Shown: piece by piece, positions 3,952 through 64,000 of the stretch
Numbering within the stretch: position 1 is the first letter of the stretch
How the letters are laid out: each line of letters opens with the position of its first letter
Assembly: GCF_041321155.1 (NCBI RefSeq)
Contig: NZ_JBGGWB010000003.1
Coordinates: forward strand, 62,001 to 126,000
DNA from: Sphingomonas sp. IW22
Lineage (GTDB): Bacteria > Pseudomonadota > Alphaproteobacteria > Sphingomonadales > Sphingomonadaceae
DNA: 64,000 nucleotides
Reading direction: 5' to 3'
The notes under the pieces: generated by a model
Seen by the model: only the letters and a program-made list of their open reading frames with translations
The model's database searches: none
Told to the model about the DNA's origin: nothing
Made by a program: the position numbers and the translations under genes

Positions 3952-6352
3952 GCGCGATCCGCTTGCGACCTATAACGCCAAGCGCGATTTCGCGCGTACC
4001 GCCGAACCGGCAGGGTCGCTGGCGGCGGGCAACGGCAATTCGTTCGTCGTGCAAAAGCATGACGCGACGCGCCTGCATTGGGATTTTCGCATCGAACTGG
4101 ACGGCGTGCTGAAAAGCTGGGCGGTGACGCGCGGCCCCAGCCTGGACCCCGCCGAAAAGCGGCTGGCCGTGCGGACCGAGGATCATCCGCTGTCCTATGC
4201 CAGCTTTGAAGGAACGATTCCGGCGGACGAATATGGCGGCGGCACCGTCATGCTGTGGGACCGGGGCACATGGTCGCCGATCAAGGGCAAGTCGGCCAGC
4301 GACCTGGAAAAAGGGCATCTGCACTTCGTTCTGGATGGCGAGCGGATGAAGGGCGAGTGGCTGCTGATCCGCCTCAAACCGCGCGGGCGGGAGAAGCGGG
4401 AGAACTGGCTGCTCAGGAAAATCGATGATCCACATGCCGGGGGCGCCGACGAACTGGTCGAAACCGCGCTGACCAGCATCGATACCGGCCGCACGATGCA
4501 GGAAATCGCCGAGGGCAAGAAGGTGAAGCGCGCCGGGAAGAGCGTGCGCAAGGCGACGCGGCCCAAGTCGCAGGATGTGCAGCTTGCCACGCTGACCGAT
4601 GCGGTGCCGGCGGGCAATGGCTGGCTGCACGAGGTGAAATATGACGGCTATCGCGCGCTGATCGCGACCGGCGGCGATGGCCCGCGCGTCTATACGCGAT
4701 CCGGCCTCGACTGGACCGACAAGTTTCCCGCCATTGCAGACGCCATGGCCGCGATCGACACGCCCGCGCTGATCGACGGTGAGATCGTCGCGATGAAGGA
4801 CGGCAAGCCTGATTTCTCGACCTTGCAGGATGCGATTTCGAACGGCGGCGGCGACATGATGCTGTTCGCCTTCGACCTGTTGGCGGCGGGCGGGGACGAT
4901 CTGCGCGCGTTGCCGCTGGTCGAGCGCAAGCAGCGCTTGCAGGCGCTGCTGCCCGCCGGGGACACGCGCATCCATTATGCCGAACATGTGCTGGGCGCGG
5001 GCGAAAAGCTGTTCGACGCCATGTGTGCGGAGGGGCTGGAGGGCATCGTGTCCAAACGCGCCGACGCCCCCTATCGCGCGGGGCGCGGCAAATCGTGGCT
5101 GAAGGTCAAATGCGTCCGGCGGCAGGAATTCGTGATCGTCGGCTGGCTGCCGTCATCGGCCAAGGGGCGGGGTTTTCGCTCGCTGCTGCTGGGGCTCAAC
5201 GAGGATGGGCAACTGCGCTATGCGGGCAAGGTCGGGACCGGATTCAATGCCGCAACGCAGGACATGCTGCTGGCCAAGCTGGAAAAGCTGAGCCGAAAGA
5301 CCGCGCCGGTCGATGTCCCACGTGCTGCCGCACGGGGCGCGCAGTGGGTGACGCCCAAGCTGGTGGCCGAAGTCGCCTTTGCCGAGTTTACCGCCGAACA
5401 GGTGGTGCGCCACGCCAGCTTTATCGCACTGCGCGACGACAAGCCGGCGAAGGATGTGGCGTCGGAGCCGACGGTGGCGGTCGCTGCTGAACCGGCAATC
5501 CGCATCACCAGTCGCGAACGTGTGATCTTTCCCGGTGACGGCATTACCAAGGGGCAGTTGGCCGATTATTATGCTGCGATCGCCGCCCTGGCGCTGCCAT
5601 GGCTGGCCAACCGCCCGATCAGCCTGGTCCGCTGTCCCCAGGGGCGCGCGAAACAATGTTTTTTCCAGAAGCATGACGCGGGCAGTTTCGGCGAGCAGGT
5701 AAATCAGGTCGATATTCGGGAAAAGGACGGGGGGCACGAACCCTATCTGTATGTCGAGGATGCGGTCGGGATGCTGGCGTGCGTGCAGATGGGCACGATC
5801 GAGTTTCATGGCTGGGGCGTGCGGGTTACCGATGTCGAGCGGCCCGACCGACTTGTCTTCGACCTGGACCCCGATGAGGGGCTGGACTTCGGCGATGTCA
5901 AAAAGGCTGCCGAGCATCTGAAATCGGTGCTGGCCGATATGGGCCTGACCAGCTTTGCCATGCTGTCGGGTGGCAAGGGCGTGCATGTCGTCGCGCCGCT
6001 GACGCCGGAGGCCGAGTGGCCGGTGGTCAAATCCTTTGCCGACCGGTTCGCCCGCGCGCTGGCGACGGCGGAGCCGGATCGCTTCACCGCGACAATGAGC
6101 AAGGCGAAGCGCAAGGGGCGCATCTTCATCGACTGGCTACGCAATCAGCGCGGGGCGACGGCGGTGCTGCCCTATGTCGTGCGCGCGCGGCCCGGCGCGC
6201 CCGTGGCGGCGCCGGTCGCGTGGAGCGAGTTGAAGGACATCGACACCGCCGCCCGCTGGACGCTTGGCGATGCCGACGAACTGATCGAGCGCGCAAACGG
6301 CCGCATCCTGAAGGGCTGGGGCGCCGCCGATCAGGTGCTGCCGCCGATCTGA
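3944..6352 (+). CDS. ligD: multifunctional ATP-dependent DNA ligase D
   Basis: An 802-residue end-joining enzyme with three domains. Residues ~1-165 are the 3'-phosphoesterase domain (FVVQKHDATRLHWDFRIELD, with the conserved His and Asp). Residues ~205-520 are the ATP-dependent ligase domain, with the adenylated lysine in HEVKYDGYRALI and the motif EGIVSKRADAPY. Residues ~530-800 are the primase-polymerase domain (RVIFPGDGITKGQLADYY, LVFDLDPDEGLDF, MLSGGKGVHVVAPL). The order PE-Lig-Pol is the usual one outside mycobacteria. ATG 3944 is chosen over GTG 3938 because GGAG at 3933-3936 has the right spacing for it. It works with Ku to process and seal double-strand breaks. Confidence 0.95.
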   Translation: MAERDPLATYNAKRDFARTAEPAGSLAAGNGNSFVVQKHDATRLHWDFRIELDGVLKSWAVTRGPSLDPAEKRLAVRTEDHPLSYASFEGTIPADEYGGGTVMLWDRGTWSPIKGKSASDLEKGHLHFVLDGERMKGEWLLIRLKPRGREKRENWLLRKIDDPHAGGADELVETALTSIDTGRTMQEIAEGKKVKRAGKSVRKATRPKSQDVQLATLTDAVPAGNGWLHEVKYDGYRALIATGGDGPRVYTRSGLDWTDKFPAIADAMAAIDTPALIDGEIVAMKDGKPDFSTLQDAISNGGGDMMLFAFDLLAAGGDDLRALPLVERKQRLQALLPAGDTRIHYAEHVLGAGEKLFDAMCAEGLEGIVSKRADAPYRAGRGKSWLKVKCVRRQEFVIVGWLPSSAKGRGFRSLLLGLNEDGQLRYAGKVGTGFNAATQDMLLAKLEKLSRKTAPVDVPRAAARGAQWVTPKLVAEVAFAEFTAEQVVRHASFIALRDDKPAKDVASEPTVAVAAEPAIRITSRERVIFPGDGITKGQLADYYAAIAALALPWLANRPISLVRCPQGRAKQCFFQKHDAGSFGEQVNQVDIREKDGGHEPYLYVEDAVGMLACVQMGTIEFHGWGVRVTDVERPDRLVFDLDPDEGLDFGDVKKAAEHLKSVLADMGLTSFAMLSGGKGVHVVAPLTPEAEWPVVKSFADRFARALATAEPDRFTATMSKAKRKGRIFIDWLRNQRGATAVLPYVVRARPGAPVAAPVAWSELKDIDTAARWTLGDADELIERANGRILKGWGAADQVLPPI

Positions 6353-7433: not shown

Positions 7434-9926
7434 ATGGCACGGATGGCAAGTCGAACGGCAAGCTTGTTCGACGCCGGTATCGTGGCGGACCGCTGGATCG
7501 CGGATTATCGCGCGGCGCGGTTGCGCGGCGACGTGATGGCCGATGCCGCTGACGATGCCGCATGGCGCGCGCTGTTCGAGGAACTGGCCGCCAATGTCGG
7601 CGAATCGCTGGCCGATGCGTTGGAACGCGCACAGCGCCAGGCCGATGACATCGGCACCGGCTTTCGTGTGGCGGGCGACAGTGACGAGCGCCCCTGGCCG
7701 CTGTCGCCGGTGCCCCTGCTGATCGACGGCGACGAATGGGCAGGTATTCGCGACGGCGTTATCCAGCGTGCCGAGTTGATGGAGACGATTGCCGCCGATC
7801 TCTATGGCCCCGCCCGGTTGGTGTCGCAGGGGCTGATTCCGGCGGCCGTGGTGACGGGCAGCCCCTATTTCCTGCGGCCGATGAAGGGTCTGGTGCCGCC
7901 GGGCGGGCATCACCTGAATGTCGTGGCGGTCGATCTGTGCCGCGGGCCGACCGGTGAATGGAGCGTGCTGGCCGATCATCTGCGCGGTCCCGTCGGCGCG
8001 GGCTATGCGCTGGAGAACCGGCTGGCAATCGCGCGGACGCTGGGCGGACTTCAGGCGCGGCTGAATGTAGAGCGGCATGCCCCCTTTTTCGCCAGCCTAC
8101 GCGACGGGCTGGCCGCCGCCTGCGCGCGCAGCGACCCGCGCATCGGGCTGATGACGCCGGGGCGGCTGAACCAGAGCTATGCCGAACAGGCACATCTGGC
8201 GCGCTATCTGGGCTTCTTGCTGGTTGAGGGTGCCGATCTGGCCGTGATCGACGACCGGCTTTACGTCCGCACCATCGCCGGGCTGAAGCGCGTCGACGGG
8301 CTGTGGCGGCGGACCGATCCCACGCTGCTGGACCCGCTGGCGTTCGATTCTACATCGGCGATCGGCGTGCCCGGACTGGTCGATGCGATGGCGGCGGGCA
8401 ATGTCGTGGTTGCCAATGCGCCCGGTGCAGGCGTGCTGGAATCGCCCGCACTGGCGGCGTTCCTCCCCGCGCTTTCCACCCGGCTGACGGGGGAGGGGCT
8501 GTCGCTGCCTAACATCGCCACCTGGTGGTGCGGACAGCCGCGCGCGGCGGCCCAGGTGGTCGATGAACTGGCCAGCATGACCATCGCTCCCGCTTTCGGC
8601 GTGCCGACCCTTGCCCTGTCCGACGGGCGCCCCGTTTCGGGGGCGGAGCTGTCCGACGATGCCCGTGCCGCGCTGCTGGCGGATATCGAGCGGCGGCCAC
8701 AGGATTATGTGGGGCAGGAAGTGGTGCATCTGTCCACTATGCCCGTCGTCATCGACGGCGCGCTGGTACCGCGACCCTTCACGCTGCGCGTCTTTGCCGC
8801 GCGCGACGGGCAAGGCGGGTGGAGCGTGCTGCCCGGCGGGTTCGCGCGCATCGGCGAACATGCCGACCCGCGCGCCACGGCCATCGGAGAGGGTGAATGG
8901 TCCGCCGACGTCATCGTCCATGGCAGCGATGCCGTGGAGCCGGTGTCGCTGCTGCCCGCCGTCGATTCGCTGCACCTGCGCCGCAATCCCGGCACCTTGC
9001 CCAGCCGCGCGGCGGACAATCTGTTCTGGCTGGGTCGCTATCTGGAACGGGGTGAGGCGCTGCTGGGCCTGATCCGCGTGTTGCTGGGCCATTCAATCAC
9101 TGCCGATGCGGGCGCGGCGCTGGCTCCGGCCACGGTCCGCCGCATCGCCGCGACGATCGCGTCGCTGGGTGCCGCGCCAGAACCGTCGAGCCACCGCCGC
9201 ACCGATCTGGTCACCACCGCGCGCACGGCCATGGAGAGCGTCGATAGTGGCTGGTATTCGGTGCGCGCCATCAACCGCCAGGCGCGCGGGCTGGGCCGGG
9301 TCAGCCGCGACCGGCTCGCCGCCGACATGATCCGCCTGCTGGACGCGCCGCACCCCACGCGGGGCGGGGTGCTGGACCGGGCAGGTTCGCTCCAGCGGCG
9401 CTATGCCGCGCTGGCGGGGCTATCGGCGGAGCATATGGGCCGCACCGATGGCTGGCGCTTCCACGATCTGGGTCGCCGCATCGAACGCGCGATCAAGATC
9501 GTGCGCGCGGTTCTGAGCTTCGGGATCGAGGCGTCGAGCGCCGATGACCTGTCGGTCCTGCTCGACCTGGCGGACAGCCAGATTAGTTATCGGCAGCGAT
9601 ATCTGACCGGCATCGCGCGGGTGGCGGTGATCGACCTGGTGGCGCTGGACCCCGGCAATCCGCGCGCGCTGGCATTTCAGGTGGCGCGCATCGCCGAGCA
9701 TCTGGCTGCGCTTCCGGTTCTGAAGGACGACGGACTGGCCGAACCGCAACAGCGCGTCGCCGCCGAACTGGGGGCGATGCTGGCGACGGCGGATGCCGCG
9801 ACGCTGGACGCCGGCGCGCTGTTGGCGATCGAGGGGCGGCTGATCGCGCTGGCGGACGCGGTGGCGCGGCGATATTTCCTGCAAGGGGCCGAACCCCTGC
9901 GCGCCAGCGGCCTGACGCTGGCATGA
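7434..9926 (+). CDS. fused circularly permuted ATP-grasp and alpha-E protein
   Basis: About 830 residues. The first ~480 are a circularly permuted ATP-grasp domain (DUF404/DUF407-type): GSPYFLRPMKGLVPPGGHH, a long central region with VVANAPGAGVLESPALAAFLP, then RPFTLRVFAARDG. The last ~320 residues form the all-helical alpha-E domain (DUF403), starting around SRAADNLFWLGRYLERGE. In many bacteria these are two genes next to a transglutaminase-like gene; here they are one polypeptide, overlapping the transglutaminase gene by 4 bases. The set is thought to make or process a peptide-like amide linkage, but no product is known. ATG 7443, with GGGGGA about 10 bases upstream, is an alternative start. 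Confidence 0.82.
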   Translation: MARMASRTASLFDAGIVADRWIADYRAARLRGDVMADAADDAAWRALFEELAANVGESLADALERAQRQADDIGTGFRVAGDSDERPWPLSPVPLLIDGDEWAGIRDGVIQRAELMETIAADLYGPARLVSQGLIPAAVVTGSPYFLRPMKGLVPPGGHHLNVVAVDLCRGPTGEWSVLADHLRGPVGAGYALENRLAIARTLGGLQARLNVERHAPFFASLRDGLAAACARSDPRIGLMTPGRLNQSYAEQAHLARYLGFLLVEGADLAVIDDRLYVRTIAGLKRVDGLWRRTDPTLLDPLAFDSTSAIGVPGLVDAMAAGNVVVANAPGAGVLESPALAAFLPALSTRLTGEGLSLPNIATWWCGQPRAAAQVVDELASMTIAPAFGVPTLALSDGRPVSGAELSDDARAALLADIERRPQDYVGQEVVHLSTMPVVIDGALVPRPFTLRVFAARDGQGGWSVLPGGFARIGEHADPRATAIGEGEWSADVIVHGSDAVEPVSLLPAVDSLHLRRNPGTLPSRAADNLFWLGRYLERGEALLGLIRVLLGHSITADAGAALAPATVRRIAATIASLGAAPEPSSHRRTDLVTTARTAMESVDSGWYSVRAINRQARGLGRVSRDRLAADMIRLLDAPHPTRGGVLDRAGSLQRRYAALAGLSAEHMGRTDGWRFHDLGRRIERAIKIVRAVLSFGIEASSADDLSVLLDLADSQISYRQRYLTGIARVAVIDLVALDPGNPRALAFQVARIAEHLAALPVLKDDGLAEPQQRVAAELGAMLATADAATLDAGALLAIEGRLIALADAVARRYFLQGAEPLRASGLTLA

Positions 9927-10810
9927 CCATCATGCGCTATGCCATCCGCCACGTGACGCATTTCGACTATGCCGAGCCGGTCGCGTTCGCCCGCTGTAAC
10001 CTCAGGCTCCAGCCCATCGACTGGCCGGGCCAGCGGGTGATCGACTATTCGCTGACCATCCGCCCTGGCGGCCGCACGGCGCCTGCACGCGCGCAGGCGG
10101 GGCTGGCGCACGTTACCCGGCTGGTCGTCGATCAGCCGACGCGCGAGCTGACCATCGAAAGCGTCGCGCACATTACCGTCGACCGGCCGATCCCCGTGCC
10201 CTCAGCCGATGATCCGACGCTCGCTGATGTCGCGCGGCTGGCCCGCGACAGCCGCGACCTGTCGCCGCTGTCGCCAGCGGCCTATCTGTACCCCAGCCCG
10301 CGCATCCCGGTGAACGACGAGATTGGGCGGTGGTGTGCTGAGGACCTGTCACCCGGACGCGGCGTGCTGGAGGCGGGGATCGCGCTTGCCCGGCGCATCC
10401 AGCGCGAATTCGCCTTCGACCCCGCCGCCACCCTGGTCGACACGCCGCCGGCAGAGGCATTCGCCAAGCGGGGTGGTGTGTGTCAGGACTTTGCCCAGAT
10501 CATGCTGTGCGGATTGCGCGCGGCGGGTGTGCCGGCGGCCTATGCGTCCGGTTATCTCCGCACGCTGCCACCACCGGGGCAGGAACGGCTGGTGGGTGCC
10601 GATGCCACTCATGCCTGGGTCCTGATCTGGTGCGGGCCGGTGCTGGGCTGGGTCGGGGTCGATCCGACCAACGGCATCTGGATGGCGACCGATCACGTCA
10701 TCGTTGCCATCGGCCGCGATTATGGCGACATCGCGCCGATCGACGGCATCGTCCTGGGTTCGGGTGCGCAGGACATGGACGTGTCGGTCGACGTCGCGCC
10801 ACAGGAGTGA
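9923..10810 (+). CDS. transglutaminase-like cysteine peptidase family protein
   Basis: A 295-residue protein with an N-terminal bacterial transglutaminase-like domain (YAIRHVTHFDYAEPV, typical of the family N-terminus) and a papain-like core. The likely catalytic triad is the Cys in GGVCQDFAQIM, the His in DATHAWVLIW and the Asp in GVDPTNG. There is no signal peptide, so it should act in the cytoplasm. It overlaps the ATP-grasp/alpha-E gene by ATGA, which indicates translational coupling; the common association of these domains suggests it hydrolyses or transfers the amide bond made by its neighbour. The specific reaction is unknown. Confidence 0.85.
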   Translation: MTIMRYAIRHVTHFDYAEPVAFARCNLRLQPIDWPGQRVIDYSLTIRPGGRTAPARAQAGLAHVTRLVVDQPTRELTIESVAHITVDRPIPVPSADDPTLADVARLARDSRDLSPLSPAAYLYPSPRIPVNDEIGRWCAEDLSPGRGVLEAGIALARRIQREFAFDPAATLVDTPPAEAFAKRGGVCQDFAQIMLCGLRAAGVPAAYASGYLRTLPPPGQERLVGADATHAWVLIWCGPVLGWVGVDPTNGIWMATDHVIVAIGRDYGDIAPIDGIVLGSGAQDMDVSVDVAPQE

Positions 10811-59346: not shown

Positions 59347-60234
59347 CTAGCCAAACGAGCGAAGACTTGCGAGAAGGTCGGGCAGCTCCGGTGCCCTGTC
59401 CTCCCGCGTGCCCGACACTAAGAACCTGCCATCTGTCCCGACATCGATCGTGATGCTGCCATCCCGTCGAGTGGTCATGACCTTGCGGAGCGGCTGCCCC
59501 AGCAAACCTCCGGGCCTGCTGAAGTCGGGTATGCCCCGCGTGCGAGCGGCATACCAGTTCCGCGTTTCCTGGGTACCATACTGCTTACGGCCATCGGAGA
59601 AGATGACGAGCTCGGGATGGCAGATCTCGAAGATCTCTTCGCAGCAGCCGTTCTCGCGACCATGGTGGGACGCGACGTACACCGTGGTGGTCGCCAGCTT
59701 CGCACGGAAGGCAGGATTCTTCAGGAGTTGACGCCAACCGGCTCGCTCCAGATCGCCACCGAACACGATGGTGAACGGACCGAAGCGTACAAATGCGGCC
59801 AGGCTGAGGTTGTTCGTGTCGGCGAAGTCGACGCCATAGCGGTTCCAGAATACGTGCCAGGCGACGCCGCCCAGGTCATGGGACCAGTCGCCGAGGAACC
59901 CGGTACCTAAACGCTCGAGGATGCCGGCCGCGGCGGCGACGCCGGCACGCATGCCGCATTCCGCTTTCATCGACCTGAGCGCCCGCCAGTCGATCGTGGG
60001 GTTGGTTACCAGTCCGCCGATCGGGCAGTCGCGCCATAGATGAGGCAGATCCTCGCAGTGATCCTCATCGAGGTTCATCAGCATCAGGGTGGCGATGCGT
60101 TCGCCCCTGTAGGCGATGGACGGATACCATGGCCTATCGCTGCACAGCCCGCAGTCCAGCATCAGGCGGTGCCCGGCTGGGCCGGTGATCACCGTGCACC
60201 CGCCGTGATCGACGTCGTGGATGTCGATCCTCAT
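59347..60234 (-). CDS. ComEC-like metallo-beta-lactamase-fold protein (second copy)
   Basis: A 295-residue protein of the metallo-beta-lactamase fold, closest to the soluble domain of ComEC/Rec2. The first strands are IDIHDVDHGGCTVITGPAG and LMLDCG. The metal motif usually HxHxDH reads NLDEDH (Asn54-His59), so two of the first histidines are replaced. The later ligands appear in NNLSLAAFVRFG-VFGGD (Asp161) and YVASHHGRENG (His190-191), followed by LVIFSDG. Such domains cut phosphodiesters or act as sensors; with a reduced metal site catalysis is uncertain. It is the last gene of the operon, 31 bases after the membrane gene. Confidence 0.82.
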   Translation of the reverse strand: MRIDIHDVDHGGCTVITGPAGHRLMLDCGLCSDRPWYPSIAYRGERIATLMLMNLDEDHCEDLPHLWRDCPIGGLVTNPTIDWRALRSMKAECGMRAGVAAAAGILERLGTGFLGDWSHDLGGVAWHVFWNRYGVDFADTNNLSLAAFVRFGPFTIVFGGDLERAGWRQLLKNPAFRAKLATTTVYVASHHGRENGCCEEIFEICHPELVIFSDGRKQYGTQETRNWYAARTRGIPDFSRPGGLLGQPLRKVMTTRRDGSITIDVGTDGRFLVSGTREDRAPELPDLLASLRSFG

Positions 60235-60265
60235 CGACCGCGCTTTCGATCATGGATCCGAGGCA

Positions 60266-60880
60266 TCACGCCGTCCCCACCTTACGCGCGACCACGTTCC
60301 CGACGAGACGGACAGCGGCGTTGCGGGCGGACAGGGCCACGAAGACATAGGTCAGCAGCACCCCGCCGCCGAGCATGAGGATCCGTGCAGGGTCGCTCGC
60401 CGGCCACAAGAGTAGCACGGGGGTGGCCAGCGTGAGCAGCGCAAGAAGCACGGCGCTGTCGCGCAGGATCAAAAAGCGACGGTGGTTGTCCGCAATTGCG
60501 GGATCGTTTTCCGTCGCCTTCAGCCACTTGTACCAGAGCGCGTTCTGCTCGGTCGGGGTCATCAGCGCCGACGGAAGCAGTACGGCGAGGTCGGTCGGGT
60601 CCACCCGGGGGTCCTTGGGGGCGAAGCCGGTGAACGCCCGACAGCCGGGGACTCGGTCGCGGAGCCGCCAGAAGACGAGCACCTCCTTCACCGATCGGGG
60701 GAAGAGTTCCTGCAGCACTAGCATGACGATGCCGGCGACTCCCGCGAATCCGGCATGCTGGAGGAGGGTCTGGACCTGCGCCACTCGGTCGATGCCGAGC
60801 AACCCGGCCGCGGCCGCATAGGCCACGATGATCGGGGCTAGGTACTTCGTGTTGATGCCGGTTTTGAGCAGGTCACCCAT
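60266..60880 (-). CDS. multi-pass membrane protein of the conjugation-like operon
   Basis: A 204-residue protein with two hydrophobic segments near the N-terminus (KYLAPIIVAYAAAAGLLG, then GFAGVAGIVMLVLQELF) and two near the C-terminus (SAVLLALLTLATPVLLLWPA, ILMLGGGVLLTYVFVALSA). Between them is a ~75-residue soluble part with charged and aromatic residues. It has no signal peptide and resembles no family I can name. The start overlaps the stop of the E1/JAB gene (TGATG), so they are translated together. In defence operons such a small membrane protein is often the effector, but this is inference. Confidence 0.75.
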   Translation of the reverse strand: MGDLLKTGINTKYLAPIIVAYAAAAGLLGIDRVAQVQTLLQHAGFAGVAGIVMLVLQELFPRSVKEVLVFWRLRDRVPGCRAFTGFAPKDPRVDPTDLAVLLPSALMTPTEQNALWYKWLKATENDPAIADNHRRFLILRDSAVLLALLTLATPVLLLWPASDPARILMLGGGVLLTYVFVALSARNAAVRLVGNVVARKVGTA

Positions 60881-63156
60881 CACGGTAGCCTCAGATGTGC
60901 TTGAATGTCGTCCTGCGCCACGATGATCATCAGCGTCGGCCGCAGATCGGGTGCGTCCCTCTCCGCGTGAGCGGTCATGGCGCGATCGTCGCGGCCCGAC
61001 ATATGCGCCGATCCGTCCGGGTGGCTGTGCCAAGTGCCGCACAGATAGACGCGGCCACGGGAAAGGCGGGTCAGCCGTCGCTCCGCGAGGGTGCCGCCGG
61101 CCTTGCCGAGTTCGAGCCTGGTCTCGGTCGCCTCTGATCCAGGCGGAAGGGAGGAGGCGTGGATGACGGTGATCACCCGACGCGTCGGGTCCCAGCTGCC
61201 GTAGAGATAGCCACCGGTCTCGGCCGGAAGCACGGCGGTGCGCTCGGCGGCCATGGCCGCGATGGCAGAAGGCGAGACGCGGATCTGCCACTCGTCCGCG
61301 CTGGGGGGTCGGAGGACCGTGAATGCCTCCATGGGAACCCAGCGCGAGCCCGTCGGCCGGAGCCGCTCGTCAAGCGGATTGAGCAAGATGCCGGCTTCGC
61401 TCCGGTCGCCGAGAATGGCGGTGCAGGCGACCGACGCGTGCTGTTCGACGGCGTGCTTGGGCAGGTGCACCGTCATAGAGGTGCAGCCGAAGCCGTAGAG
61501 CAGCGGGTCGGGGCCCAGCGGATGCCGATCCTCGTACTTGAGCCAGGCCGCCACGTCGGGATCGTCGGGTGCAAGCCCGATCGTCGCGAGCATCATGTCC
61601 GACATGGTGGGCCCGCCCGGCGGCGACACGAACGTCATTCCGAGGCGCCCCTGGTGGAACATCTCGGTCCTCACGATGGTCGCGTCTGCCGATCCACGCA
61701 GTTCGTCCATCCGCAGCCGGACCTGTTCGTCGGCGCTGGCGTCGATCACGAGCCGTCCCTCGGTTCTTCCCTTGAGTTCGTCGATCCGCGCGGTCGCAAT
61801 GTCGTCCCGCACGGCCGCGGACTGGCCCTCGTCACGCCAGAGCGCGTCGGCCAGCCGCTTCGCCTGGTCGGCCTTGTTGGCGTAGATGTCCTTCGTGCGG
61901 GCGGAATGCCGGGTCAGGTTGTGCGGGTGGATCCGGTCCTTGTCCCACACCAGCACGTCCTCCATTCCGGAGCGGGCGAGGTTGTCATGTATCGCGCTGC
62001 CGAGGGCGCCGTGCCCAAGCAGCGCGACCGGCGGCAGCGGGTCAACCCCGGCCACCCAGCGCATGAGCGATGGTCGTGGCGGATAGTCGCCGACGATCGT
62101 CTCGATGCGGGTGTCGGCGTCAAGGATGTCCTTGTCGAGATCCTGCGAGATCAGGAAGGCCCGCAGTTCGAGGCTCCGGGCGGCGGGGTCGTCGGAATAG
62201 CCGAAGAAGGCGCTCATGATCGGCGCCGGTCGCCACACTCCTATGATGACCACCATCGCCTTCCCGCCGAGCGGCGGGCGGTGGCACCGAAAGTCTACGT
62301 CGTTTTTCCGCAGTTGCAGGATTGTGGAGACGAAGGCAGCGTCGACGCCGATCGCCTTCATGCCCTCCAGCAGCTCGCCGCCGGCCCGCCAGGTCTCGAA
62401 CAGCGGGTCACGTTCGACGGCCGAGGGTTCGCGCCATACGAACACCCACGGGATCGCGTGCCGCTCACCGCCGAAGTTCCCGTTGTGATGGCCGAGCGCC
62501 TTGATGACGTCATGGGGCTGGAGGATCTGCGAGAAGACGGACACCTGCTTGCGCTCGTCGTCATCGAAGTTGATCGCAACGCCGACCGCGCTTCCCGCCC
62601 CGGGGTTGGCGAGCGCATGCTCCTGGAAGACGCTCGGCTCGATCTGGCCCATTCGCAGCTTCTGACCGACGCCGAACGGCACCGGCTCCCAGCCATCCAT
62701 CATCAGGGTGCCCGTCTTCGCGTCGCGCAGGAAGTCACGCAGGCGGGTCATGATGGCCTCTATGCCGGCGCGCTCGTAGATCGGCTGTATGCCGCCGAGT
62801 GCCAGGCAGGGTGCTGCACGGCACCCGGACTCGCCCGAGCAGAGATGGCCGATCTTGCGCGGGAAGTCCTCGCGGTCGCAGAGCACATTGTAGGGCGCGG
62901 CGCGACCGAAGGCGCGGCCCTCACGGTAAACGAAATGGATGCGTTCCACCTCGCGCACGTCGGCTGCCGGTTCCTCGACCGTCGGCTCGGTCATGATGTC
63001 GAAGGTCAGTATCTCGCCTTCGTCCAGGCGGCGTAGCTCGATTGACGACGCGACGACACCAGCGGACTGCGAGATGCGCGCGATCTCCAGCAGCTGGCTA
63101 AGGTCCGGCTCCGCGACGATCTCGCCATCGACGGGTTCGTCGCTGCCGTCAGCCAT
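60880..63156 (-). CDS. E2-like/E1 (ThiF)/JAB deconjugase fusion protein
   Basis: A 758-residue protein with three apparent domains. Residues ~60-160 look like a bacterial E2-type conjugating domain, with Cys117 in SGCRAAPCLALGG and a final DAKTGTLMMDGWEP helix and strand. Residues ~370-570 are an E1/ThiF adenylating domain: nucleotide-binding GHGALGSAIH, Asp405 and the NLTRH stretch, and a candidate thioester Cys558 in YGFGCTSM. Residues ~620-758 are a JAB/JAMM metalloprotease with Glu646 (ETGGYLYG), His710, His712, Ser720 and Asp723 in TWHSHPDGSAHMSGRD. The set would activate, transfer and remove a small protein tag. It overlaps its neighbours by 8 and 1 bases. Confidence 0.85.
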   Translation of the reverse strand: MADGSDEPVDGEIVAEPDLSQLLEIARISQSAGVVASSIELRRLDEGEILTFDIMTEPTVEEPAADVREVERIHFVYREGRAFGRAAPYNVLCDREDFPRKIGHLCSGESGCRAAPCLALGGIQPIYERAGIEAIMTRLRDFLRDAKTGTLMMDGWEPVPFGVGQKLRMGQIEPSVFQEHALANPGAGSAVGVAINFDDDERKQVSVFSQILQPHDVIKALGHHNGNFGGERHAIPWVFVWREPSAVERDPLFETWRAGGELLEGMKAIGVDAAFVSTILQLRKNDVDFRCHRPPLGGKAMVVIIGVWRPAPIMSAFFGYSDDPAARSLELRAFLISQDLDKDILDADTRIETIVGDYPPRPSLMRWVAGVDPLPPVALLGHGALGSAIHDNLARSGMEDVLVWDKDRIHPHNLTRHSARTKDIYANKADQAKRLADALWRDEGQSAAVRDDIATARIDELKGRTEGRLVIDASADEQVRLRMDELRGSADATIVRTEMFHQGRLGMTFVSPPGGPTMSDMMLATIGLAPDDPDVAAWLKYEDRHPLGPDPLLYGFGCTSMTVHLPKHAVEQHASVACTAILGDRSEAGILLNPLDERLRPTGSRWVPMEAFTVLRPPSADEWQIRVSPSAIAAMAAERTAVLPAETGGYLYGSWDPTRRVITVIHASSLPPGSEATETRLELGKAGGTLAERRLTRLSRGRVYLCGTWHSHPDGSAHMSGRDDRAMTAHAERDAPDLRPTLMIIVAQDDIQAHLRLP

Positions 63157-64000
63157 AAGAGCCGCCCCCTCCGACCGCCGCGCCGCCGCCCCCGAGACCG
63201 ACGGTTGCCGGCACCTTTGCCGGCGCGAGTGACGGGCCGCCGCTGGTCAGGTTGAAGACGACATGGGCCGGAAGGTCCGAGGCTCCGTTCCCGCCGGTGC
63301 AGCGGAAGCGGCCCTCCACCGATCCGGTGATCTCGCCGCCGTTGGCGAGGATGCGCAGATAGCGGCGCTTGGCGTGCCATGACGGCGGCGTGTCGCCGCC
63401 CCGCACCACGCGCCGGCTGCTCGACACGACGTATCCGTTGCCGCGCTGCTCGCCGAGTGCCTTCAACGCCTCGGCCGACTCGGTGAACTCCTCGTCCTTA
63501 CAGCCGCCGTTGAGCACGCGTCCGATCGACCGGCGCGAGCAGTGATGCGGCGCCAGCAGGACGTGCCACGCTAGCTGGTCGGGGGTCTTGCGGTGAACCT
63601 CCTTTTCCAGCCTCTCCAGCACCTCGACCGAGGTGTCGCCGCAGGTTAGGATCAGATTCTCGCCGCCGAATCGCCGGATTGTCCACTGGATTACGAGGCT
63701 GGTGGGGTTCGAGGATGCGGGAGGGCAGCCCTCGGCGGTCTTGGGGATATTCCATTCTGCGGGTGTCGGCGCGAGAAGACGCCATTGGAAGTCGGTGGCG
63801 ATAGCCCCGTTCGTGAACCGACTGGTATCCATCACTTTGAGCCGGTTGCCATCGCGCTCGCCCGCGGCGGTGCCCTTGAGCGCGTTGCGCCGCTTGATCT
63901 CGTCGGTGATGGGCTTCGACTGTTCGGTGACGTAGTGGGGATTTAGGCCGTACGGGGTGCACCAGATCTCGTCCACGATGATCTTGGGATCAGAGTCTTC
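63149..64000 (-). CDS. ComEC-like metallo-beta-lactamase-fold protein with Gly-rich tail (partial)
   Basis: The visible 283 residues are the C-terminal part of a larger protein cut by the window edge; the frame is open at 64000. NPTSLVIQWTIRRFGGENLI, followed by LTCGD, and VLLAPHHCSRRSIGRV are the second half of a ComEC/Rec2-type metallo-beta-lactamase fold. The last ~85 residues form another small domain (RYLRILANGGEITGSVEGRF, HVVFNLTSGGPS) and end in GLGGGGAAVGGGGSYG, a glycine-rich tail. The first metal motif is outside the window. Its stop overlaps the start of the E1/JAB gene by 8 bases, so it is the operon gene immediately upstream. Confidence 0.78.
   Translation of the reverse strand, partial: EDSDPKIIVDEIWCTPYGLNPHYVTEQSKPITDEIKRRNALKGTAAGERDGNRLKVMDTSRFTNGAIATDFQWRLLAPTPAEWNIPKTAEGCPPASSNPTSLVIQWTIRRFGGENLILTCGDTSVEVLERLEKEVHRKTPDQLAWHVLLAPHHCSRRSIGRVLNGGCKDEEFTESAEALKALGEQRGNGYVVSSSRRVVRGGDTPPSWHAKRRYLRILANGGEITGSVEGRFRCTGGNGASDLPAHVVFNLTSGGPSLAPAKVPATVGLGGGGAAVGGGGSYG

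What the first reader, a model, noticed from the sequence alone, without database searches (positions are those of the whole stretch)
59347..64000. Operon with an E2-E1-JAB fusion between two metallo-beta-lactamase-fold proteins and a membrane protein
Four minus-strand genes overlap or nearly touch (8 bases, 1 base, 31-base gap). The 758-residue protein seems to combine in one chain the activities that other bacterial ubiquitin-like systems (type II CBASS Cap2/Cap3, Bil) keep in two or more proteins: E2-like with Cys117, E1 with GHGALGS and Cys558, and a complete JAMM motif. Both partner enzymes have the ComEC-like NxxSL...GD and SHH/PHH features. The location beside a truncated esterase and mobile-element debris fits a defence island. 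I cannot tell whether this architecture is already named in the literature.
Basis: partly seen in the sequence, partly recalled or inferred. Interest (0 to 1): 0.9.

Follow-up and report, generated by a model that had tools for sequence, protein, structure and literature searches.

The report
Bacterial ubiquitin-like defence operon (6A-MBL)
A mobile four-gene bacterial cassette carries an all-in-one ubiquitin-type enzyme of an already named anti-phage kind, and the tail of its partner enzyme suggests that this partner itself plays the part of ubiquitin, which can be tested directly.

Summary
The anatomy is confirmed. Four overlapping or adjacent minus-strand genes encode a ComEC-like metallo-beta-lactamase-fold protein (MBL1), a 758-aa E2-E1-JAB fusion, a 4-TM protein and a second ComEC-like MBL (MBL2). 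The architecture is not new: Iyer et al. 2006 list it as operon type 6a, and NCBIfam names both core proteins "anti-phage 6A-MBL system" above its cut-offs. The predicted fusion structure matches CBASS Cap2 over E2 and E1, and the catalytic residues are intact.

What I did not find in print: no ubiquitin-like gene turned up among the proteins and two small ORFs scanned, but MBL1 ends in a disordered tail with a terminal glycine. In 26 of 26 intact loci (20 groups under 60% identity, four phyla) [AHYF]-Gly lies with at most eight residues after it; 14 end in Gly and 12 carry a 1-6 residue extension, like a ubiquitin precursor. The same loose pattern occurs in 2 of 79 fusion homologues and 38 of 117 MBL2 homologues. 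I infer that MBL1 is the conjugated modifier, as cGAS is in type II CBASS. The gene after the fusion varies (patatin phospholipase, TM protein with or without MBL2), like an exchangeable membrane effector. No biochemistry was possible; the most relevant papers are not held.

The parts
63149..64000 (-). MBL1 (6A-MBL enzyme), ComEC-like metallo-beta-lactamase-fold protein, 377 aa; starts outside the window at window position 64282 (G000:C3:126282)
   Evidence: NF058524 227.1 bits, cut-off 220; AF2 model of the 93%-identical homologue P0006, pLDDT 88.9, nearest PDB chain ComEC domain 9ic4; D30, H69, D71, D73, H74, D216, H246, H247 in 26 of 26 loci
63152..63214 (-). Codons of the C-terminal tail of MBL1 (residues 357-377), ending in Gly377; proposed site of adenylation and conjugation
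   Evidence: pLDDT under 50 for residues 357-377 in the model of P0006; [AHYF]G followed by at most 8 residues in 26 of 26 loci
60880..63156 (-). E2-E1-JAB fusion (Cap2- and Cap3-like activities in one chain), 758 aa
   Evidence: NF058523 356.3 bits, cut-off 320; Pfam Prok-E2_A, ThiF, Prok-JAB
62677..63111 (-). E2-like part, about residues 16-160; H104 and C117
   Evidence: Prok-E2_A residues 65-159; the Cap2 7to3_A alignment starts at model residue 16; H104 and C117 in 24 of 24 loci
61315..62085 (-). E1-like adenylation part, about residues 358-614; C558
   Evidence: ThiF; Cap2, MoeB, ThiF and SUMO E1 matches; C558 in 24 of 24 loci
60880..61302 (-). JAB/JAMM isopeptidase part, about residues 619-758; E646, H710, H712, S720, D723
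   Evidence: Prok-JAB residues 630-748; the five residues in 24 of 24 loci
60266..60880 (-). 204-aa membrane protein with 2+2 TM segments by hydropathy, proposed membrane effector
   Evidence: hydropathy; relatives at the same place in L071 and L080 and in L004-L006
59347..60234 (-). MBL2, 295-aa ComEC-like MBL (PADLOC PDC-M48B), proposed regulator or second enzyme of the effector module
   Evidence: PDLC04674 207.9 bits; relatives of MBL2 in L065, L070, L080, L088 and PDC-M48B proteins in L068, L069, L075

Best explanation
This is a 6A-MBL operon (shown by family models, residues and fold). The E1 part adenylates the C-terminal glycine of MBL1, carries it as a thioester on C558, passes it to C117 of the E2 part, and conjugates MBL1 to a target; the JAB part trims tail extensions in relatives that have them and removes MBL1 again (inferred, about 75% likely). 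MBL1 is therefore the ubiquitin of its own system, as the cGAS-like cyclase is in type II CBASS. Conjugation places or primes its metal-dependent, ComEC-like nuclease or phosphodiesterase activity (inferred, about 50%). Output goes to a membrane effector, here the 4-TM protein with MBL2 as its accessory, elsewhere a patatin phospholipase (inferred from position and exchangeability, about 55%). Some relatives have only the two core genes, so the effector is optional.
For: Both core proteins above family cut-offs. Cap2 is the best structural match over E2 and E1, and the top chains are Cap2 with its cyclase or the cyclase C-terminus. The idea was written down before any homologue tail was seen (note, read back). 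Tails: 88 of the 120 listed of 190 homologues end in G; 110 of the 114 of at least 350 aa carry the motif; 26 of 26 intact loci, 20 of 20 representatives under 60% identity, median pairwise identity 28%. The rule that allows short extensions was formed; 12 of 12 later intact loci fit it (L078-L083, L085-L089, L091), one of them (L081, ending QG) only through an earlier AG. Extensions of 1-6 residues in 12 of 26 fit precursors trimmed by a JAB. The tail is disordered in the model. No beta-grasp family matched the operon proteins and two small ORFs. In CBASS cGAS is conjugated through a C-terminal Gly or Ala (Jenson 2023, passages read). Gene after the fusion, 27 loci: patatin 10, TM plus MBL2 7, TM without MBL2 5, MBL2 only 1, none recognised 4.
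Against: No conjugate, thioester or complex was shown or modelled. The motif pattern is loose: it also occurs in 16 of 147 other ORFs of at least 250 aa in 14 loci (29 of 161 with MBL1 counted), in 38 of 117 MBL2 homologues and 2 of 11 other MBLs of the loci, and it was refined after the first tails were seen. Strict C-terminal Gly holds in 14 of 26 loci only. Four of 114 close homologues lack the motif (ends SYA, SYA, GGGS, GDG). The Avs1a and MBL3-family controls planned were not run. A Ubl encoded elsewhere in the genome is not excluded. The third gene may be an independent neighbour in some loci. The anti-phage label is NCBI's name; I saw no experiment.
Confidence: 0.75

Rival explanations
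1. The E2-E1-JAB enzyme acts on a separate ubiquitin-like protein encoded elsewhere in the genome; MBL1 is an effector or a substrate, and its glycine tail binds the enzyme without being conjugated.
For: E1 enzymes of the ThiF class act on small beta-grasp carriers (established knowledge), and the genome has at least one other weak match to the E1 region of the model (G000:C1:575151-575450, 50.8 bits). Genome-wide Ubl genes were not searched for.
Against: Related operons occur in four phyla and I saw no Ubl gene in the record annotations of the 16 plasmid regions fetched; the end of the MBL1 tail is conserved where the linker before it is not; Cap2, the nearest structure, uses an operon-encoded enzyme as modifier.
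Confidence: 0.12
2. MBL1 is the modifier but the operon works like Bil: MBL1 is attached to phage structural proteins and spoils virions directly, and the third gene is an independent or optional addition.
For: Two-gene versions exist in E. coli and Klebsiella, with a WYL gene upstream and umuD or a umuC remnant, not an effector, downstream.
Against: 22 of 27 loci have a patatin or TM gene after the fusion, an arrangement like that of CBASS effectors.
Confidence: 0.2
3. Housekeeping sulfur-carrier adenylation (thiamine or molybdopterin type) or a decayed remnant with unrelated neighbours.
For: ThiF domain; one source names a homologue 'thiamine biosynthesis protein ThiF'.
Against: NF058523 over cut-off; E2, E1 and JAB residues intact; four-gene block shared with three other records.
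Confidence: 0.02

Closest known systems
6A-MBL anti-phage system (NCBIfam NF058523, NF058524); operon type 6a of Iyer et al. 2006
   Same: Same triple-module protein and same kind of MBL partner; both core proteins pass the curated cut-offs.
   Different: A low-scoring branch (356 against 320; 227 against 220), a GGGSYG tail, and a linked 4-TM protein and second MBL. The 2006 paper says usually two genes; its section 14, which I read, does not discuss the MBL tail.
Type II CBASS (CD-NTase, Cap2, Cap3, effector)
   Same: Cap2-type E2-E1 fold, JAB, a glycine at or near the C-terminus of the operon's own enzyme, membrane-type genes including patatins at the effector position, WYL genes upstream in several loci.
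   Different: An MBL enzyme in place of the cyclase; Cap2- and Cap3-like parts fused; no CD-NTase match. The two patatins and other third genes scanned gave no PADLOC effector match, so the patatins are not shown to be CapV.
Bil and Bub systems
   Same: E1, E2 and JAB activities (recalled; Bub structures appear).
   Different: Those have ubiquitin-like proteins (recalled); none was found here.
PADLOC PDC-M48
   Same: MBL2 matches PDC-M48B strongly.
   Different: No other PDC-M48 component was listed for the operon proteins; that an A component exists is inferred from the letter B.

Membership tests
6A-MBL system (NCBIfam) | E2-E1-JAB protein over the NF058523 cut-off | tested here: met
   356.3 bits, cut-off 320
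6A-MBL system (NCBIfam) | Adjacent MBL over the NF058524 cut-off | tested here: met
   227.1 bits, cut-off 220; genes overlap by 8 bases
6A-MBL system (NCBIfam) | Anti-phage activity | not testable with these tools
   known to me only from the family name
Operon type 6a (Iyer 2006) | E2, E1, JAB in that order in one chain, next to an MBL | tested here: met
Type II CBASS | CD-NTase in the operon | tested here: not met
   no CD-NTase among the listed matches of P0001-P0005 (for P0001 PADLOC shows the best 25 of 53)
Type II CBASS | Cap2-type E2-E1 protein | tested here: met
Type II CBASS | Operon-encoded enzyme with a conserved C-terminal Gly or Ala | tested here: met
   on MBL1, not on a cyclase: 14 of 26 loci end in G, the other 12 have the Gly 1-6 residues before the end
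Type II CBASS | Covalent conjugation of that enzyme | not testable with these tools
   no biochemistry
Bil / Bub | Ubiquitin-like protein in the operon | tested here: inconclusive
   no family match for the operon proteins and two small ORFs; small ORFs were not folded
ComEC/Rec2 | Membrane channel (competence) part beside the MBL domain | tested here: not met
   MBL1 (377 aa) and MBL2 (295 aa) have no TM segment by hydropathy; MBL1's fold resembles the MBL domain 9ic4 only
PDC-M48 (PADLOC) | B protein together with its partner | tested here: inconclusive
   B matched (PDLC04674); no partner model was listed, and whether one exists was not seen

The most novel reading that the evidence does not exclude
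A metallo-beta-lactamase-fold enzyme is the covalent modifier of its own E1-E2-JAB machine: it is adenylated at a glycine at or near its C-terminus (after JAB trimming in nearly half of the lineages seen), attached to targets and released again. Enzyme-as-ubiquitin would then be a general bacterial strategy, with at least two unrelated enzymes (cyclase, MBL) served by the same conjugation chassis and by the same kind of exchangeable membrane effector.
Probability: 0.7. Interest if true: 0.8.

Novelty: new member of a known kind. Interest (0 to 1): 0.62.

Why it matters
Operon type 6a was described in 2006 as a triple-module protein and an MBL, with no ubiquitin named in the section that I read. 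A conserved, disordered, glycine-ended tail on the MBL partner names a candidate modifier and the residue to mutate, and two-gene versions occur naturally in E. coli (29 of 5426 genomes hold at least 80% of the two genes). If true, it would extend the cGAS finding from an oddity of CBASS to a principle.

Tried and rejected
A ubiquitin-like gene right of the window: not found. ORFs of 60-82 aa between MBL3 and MBL1 (L002:5338-5586) match no Pfam family convincingly and lie mostly outside the block shared with L004-L006, which begins 113-126 bases before MBL1. MBL3 (P0003, 463 aa, L002:5583-6974) as a fifth member: rejected; no match in L004-L006 and outside the block.

MBL2 as modifier: it ends in G here, but homologues do not keep this (18 of 117 end in G, 38 of 117 match the loose motif), and the close Sphingomonas copies run on past it.

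Comparison of the two E. coli alleles of MBL1 for constraint on the tail: too few changes to tell.

Papers: '6A-MBL' occurs in 0 held papers; the listings of searches showed no title or abstract on conjugation of an MBL. [quoted passage not shown] Iyer 2006: passages and section 14. Ledvina 2023, Hor 2024, Chambers 2024, Ye 2026 and Gong 2025 are not held, so earlier publication of the tail idea cannot be excluded.

Sampling and rows dropped: of 282 plasmid records with a match (40 listed) I fetched 16, chosen for diversity; two more came and one E. coli chromosome. From I fetched every genome over the fusion cut-off plus G389; three weaker loci with the E1-E2 and JAB parts in separate ORFs (L012, L044, L045) showed no MBL1 match and the other weak matches were not examined. 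The tail count leaves out L066 (MBL1 in two ORFs), L084 (MBL1 cut by IS5), L005 (gives the same alignment figures as L004) and L007 (part of the fusion, no MBL1 match); L090, L091 and L092 were seen later, and of these only L091 is counted, among the 12 later loci. The 24 fusion proteins leave out L066, L073 (split), L087 (doubtful start) and L004-L007, L090, L092 (near-copies).

Full report
What is there. The window is G000:C3:62001-126000. Its right edge cuts the first gene of a minus-strand operon; with the neighbouring stretch (L002) the operon reads MBL1 (377 aa), E2-E1-JAB (758 aa), 4-TM protein (204 aa), MBL2 (295 aa), with overlaps of 8 and 1 bases and a 31-base gap. The same four genes form a block of about 5.14 kb at 85-87% DNA identity in three other Sphingomonas records (L004, L005, L006); the alignment begins 113-126 bases before MBL1 and ends 87 bases after MBL2. 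L004 and L005 give identical figures; the ORFs around L005 and L006 differ, so the cassette appears to travel as a unit. A further MBL gene (463 aa) 300 bases upstream lies outside the block.

What family it belongs to. The fusion passes NF058523 '6A-MBL_cap2_3' (356.3 against 320) and MBL1 passes NF058524 '6A-MBL_enzyme' (227.1 against 220). Iyer et al. 2006 (section 14 read; Table 1 passage) described the same triple-module protein next to a specialised MBL as operon type 6a. In 398 genomes sampled from the phylum, MBL1 over cut-off occurs in 7 and the fusion in the same 7 (6 over cut-off; G389's is in two pieces under it); in the class sample 4 of 385 have the fusion over cut-off, this genome included. 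Plasmid relatives lie in Pseudomonadota, Bacteroidota, Deinococcota and Actinomycetota.

Where is the ubiquitin? None of the operon proteins and two small ORFs scanned matches a beta-grasp family. In type II CBASS the modifier is the cyclase itself, joined through a C-terminal Gly or Ala (Jenson 2023, passages read). I noted the idea that MBL1, which ends ...GGGGSYG, plays that part before any homologue tail was shown (read back). Then: 88 of the 120 listed of 190 homologues end in G. Of the 114 of at least 350 aa, 110 have [AHYF]G followed by at most eight residues; the four exceptions end SYA, SYA, GGGS and GDG. Over 26 intact loci (20 representatives under 60% identity; median pairwise identity 28%) 26 of 26 have it; 14 end exactly in G (one, L081, in QG, so that it meets the pattern only through an earlier AG), and 12 carry one to six residues after the glycine. 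The recurring ends are RAG, AHG, GYG and GFG. The alignment shows a variable Ala/Gly/Ser/Pro-rich linker before the conserved end, and in the model of the close homologue P0006 residues 357-377 have pLDDT under 50 while the core is well predicted (mean 88.9).

Controls. The same loose pattern: 2 of 79 fusion homologues; 16 of 147 other ORFs of at least 250 aa in 14 loci (29 of 161 if the 14 MBL1 ORFs or pieces are counted); 38 of 117 MBL2 homologues and 2 of 11 other MBLs of the loci. The Avs1a and MBL3-family controls that I had planned were not run.

What MBL1 may do. D30, H69, D71, D73, H74, D216, H246 and H247 are identical in 26 of 26 loci, a ComEC-like metal site (motif recalled); the nearest solved structure is the ComEC lactamase-like domain 9ic4 (E 2.6e-14, TMq 0.50), followed by phosphorylcholine esterase, with RNase J folds further down. 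Nuclease or phosphodiesterase activity is therefore inferred, not shown.

The output gene. Over 27 locus types the position after the fusion holds a patatin in 10 (L067, L073, L077, L078 on the opposite strand, L079, L081, L082, L084, L085, L091), a TM protein with an MBL2 in 7 (window, L065, L068, L069, L070, L080, L088), a TM protein without one in 5 (L071, L072, L076, L083, L089), MBL2 alone in 1 (L075) and nothing recognised in 4 (L066, L074, L086, L087). The assignments rest on Pfam (L067), record annotation, PADLOC, similarity (L073 to L067, E 1e-145; L080 and L088 to MBL2) or hydropathy. The TM proteins fall in at least two sequence families: the window with L071 and L080, and L068, L069, L070, L076, L088 and L089; L065, L072 and L083 match neither. 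WYL-domain genes lie upstream in L075, L079, L081, L086, L087, L090 and L092; CapW, a WYL protein, is among the regulators of CBASS and other immune operons (passages in PMC13373217). This is the layout of CBASS with an MBL in place of the cyclase. The third genes scanned, two patatins among them, gave no PADLOC effector match, so identity with CBASS effectors is not claimed.

Verdict. A real, intact, mobile 6A-MBL operon of a known kind, with an accessory TM-MBL2 module. The part worth a specialist's time is the tail of MBL1, which names a candidate modifier for a machine without a recognised one. Whether this is already published with the 6A-MBL name could not be checked: the phrase occurs in no held paper, and five relevant papers are not held.

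Noticed in passing
L002:5583-6974 (G000:C3:126582-127973, just right of the window): A further 463-aa MBL-fold gene with weak LmuA and Avs1a matches; its best plasmid relatives are in Agrobacterium and Rhizobium, one near an IS1595 transposase and a short recombinase gene. Not part of the conserved cassette.
   Followed up: partly
L002:7606-9315 and L002:17270-18037: A glycosidase-like gene (named by eye) and a second, partial copy with a nearly identical C-terminal part, 8 kb apart, with a transposase-like fragment (recognised by eye) between them at L002:16468-16863: rearrangement beside the operon.
   Followed up: no
L073 (G389:C1), 4115-5695 and 9049-10629: Two 526-aa ORFs with the same last residues, one of them lying between the two pieces of the E2-E1-JAB gene: apparently an insertion element.
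   Followed up: no
L086, L090, L092: Two-gene 6A-MBL versions in E. coli and Klebsiella with an upstream WYL gene and an integrase nearby; 29 of 5426 E. coli genomes hold at least 80% of the two genes, in versions of at least 99% or 80-90% identity.
   Followed up: partly
L072:10416-11039: The TM protein after the fusion has a weak PADLOC match to Csx27 (E 0.0036), a protein associated with type VI-B CRISPR.
   Followed up: no
L084:2430-3248: An IS5 transposase gene sits between a shortened MBL1 and the fusion in a Roseomonas plasmid: the MBL1 tail is lost while the fusion and patatin genes remain.
   Followed up: no
L074:13288-14724, L083:9162-10098 and L087:5736-7163: Additional MBL-type genes near three of the plasmid operons (annotated as MBL fold in L083 and L087, a weak profile match in L074); in L087 one gene away from an AAA ATPase gene. 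Possibly a separate defence system.
   Followed up: no
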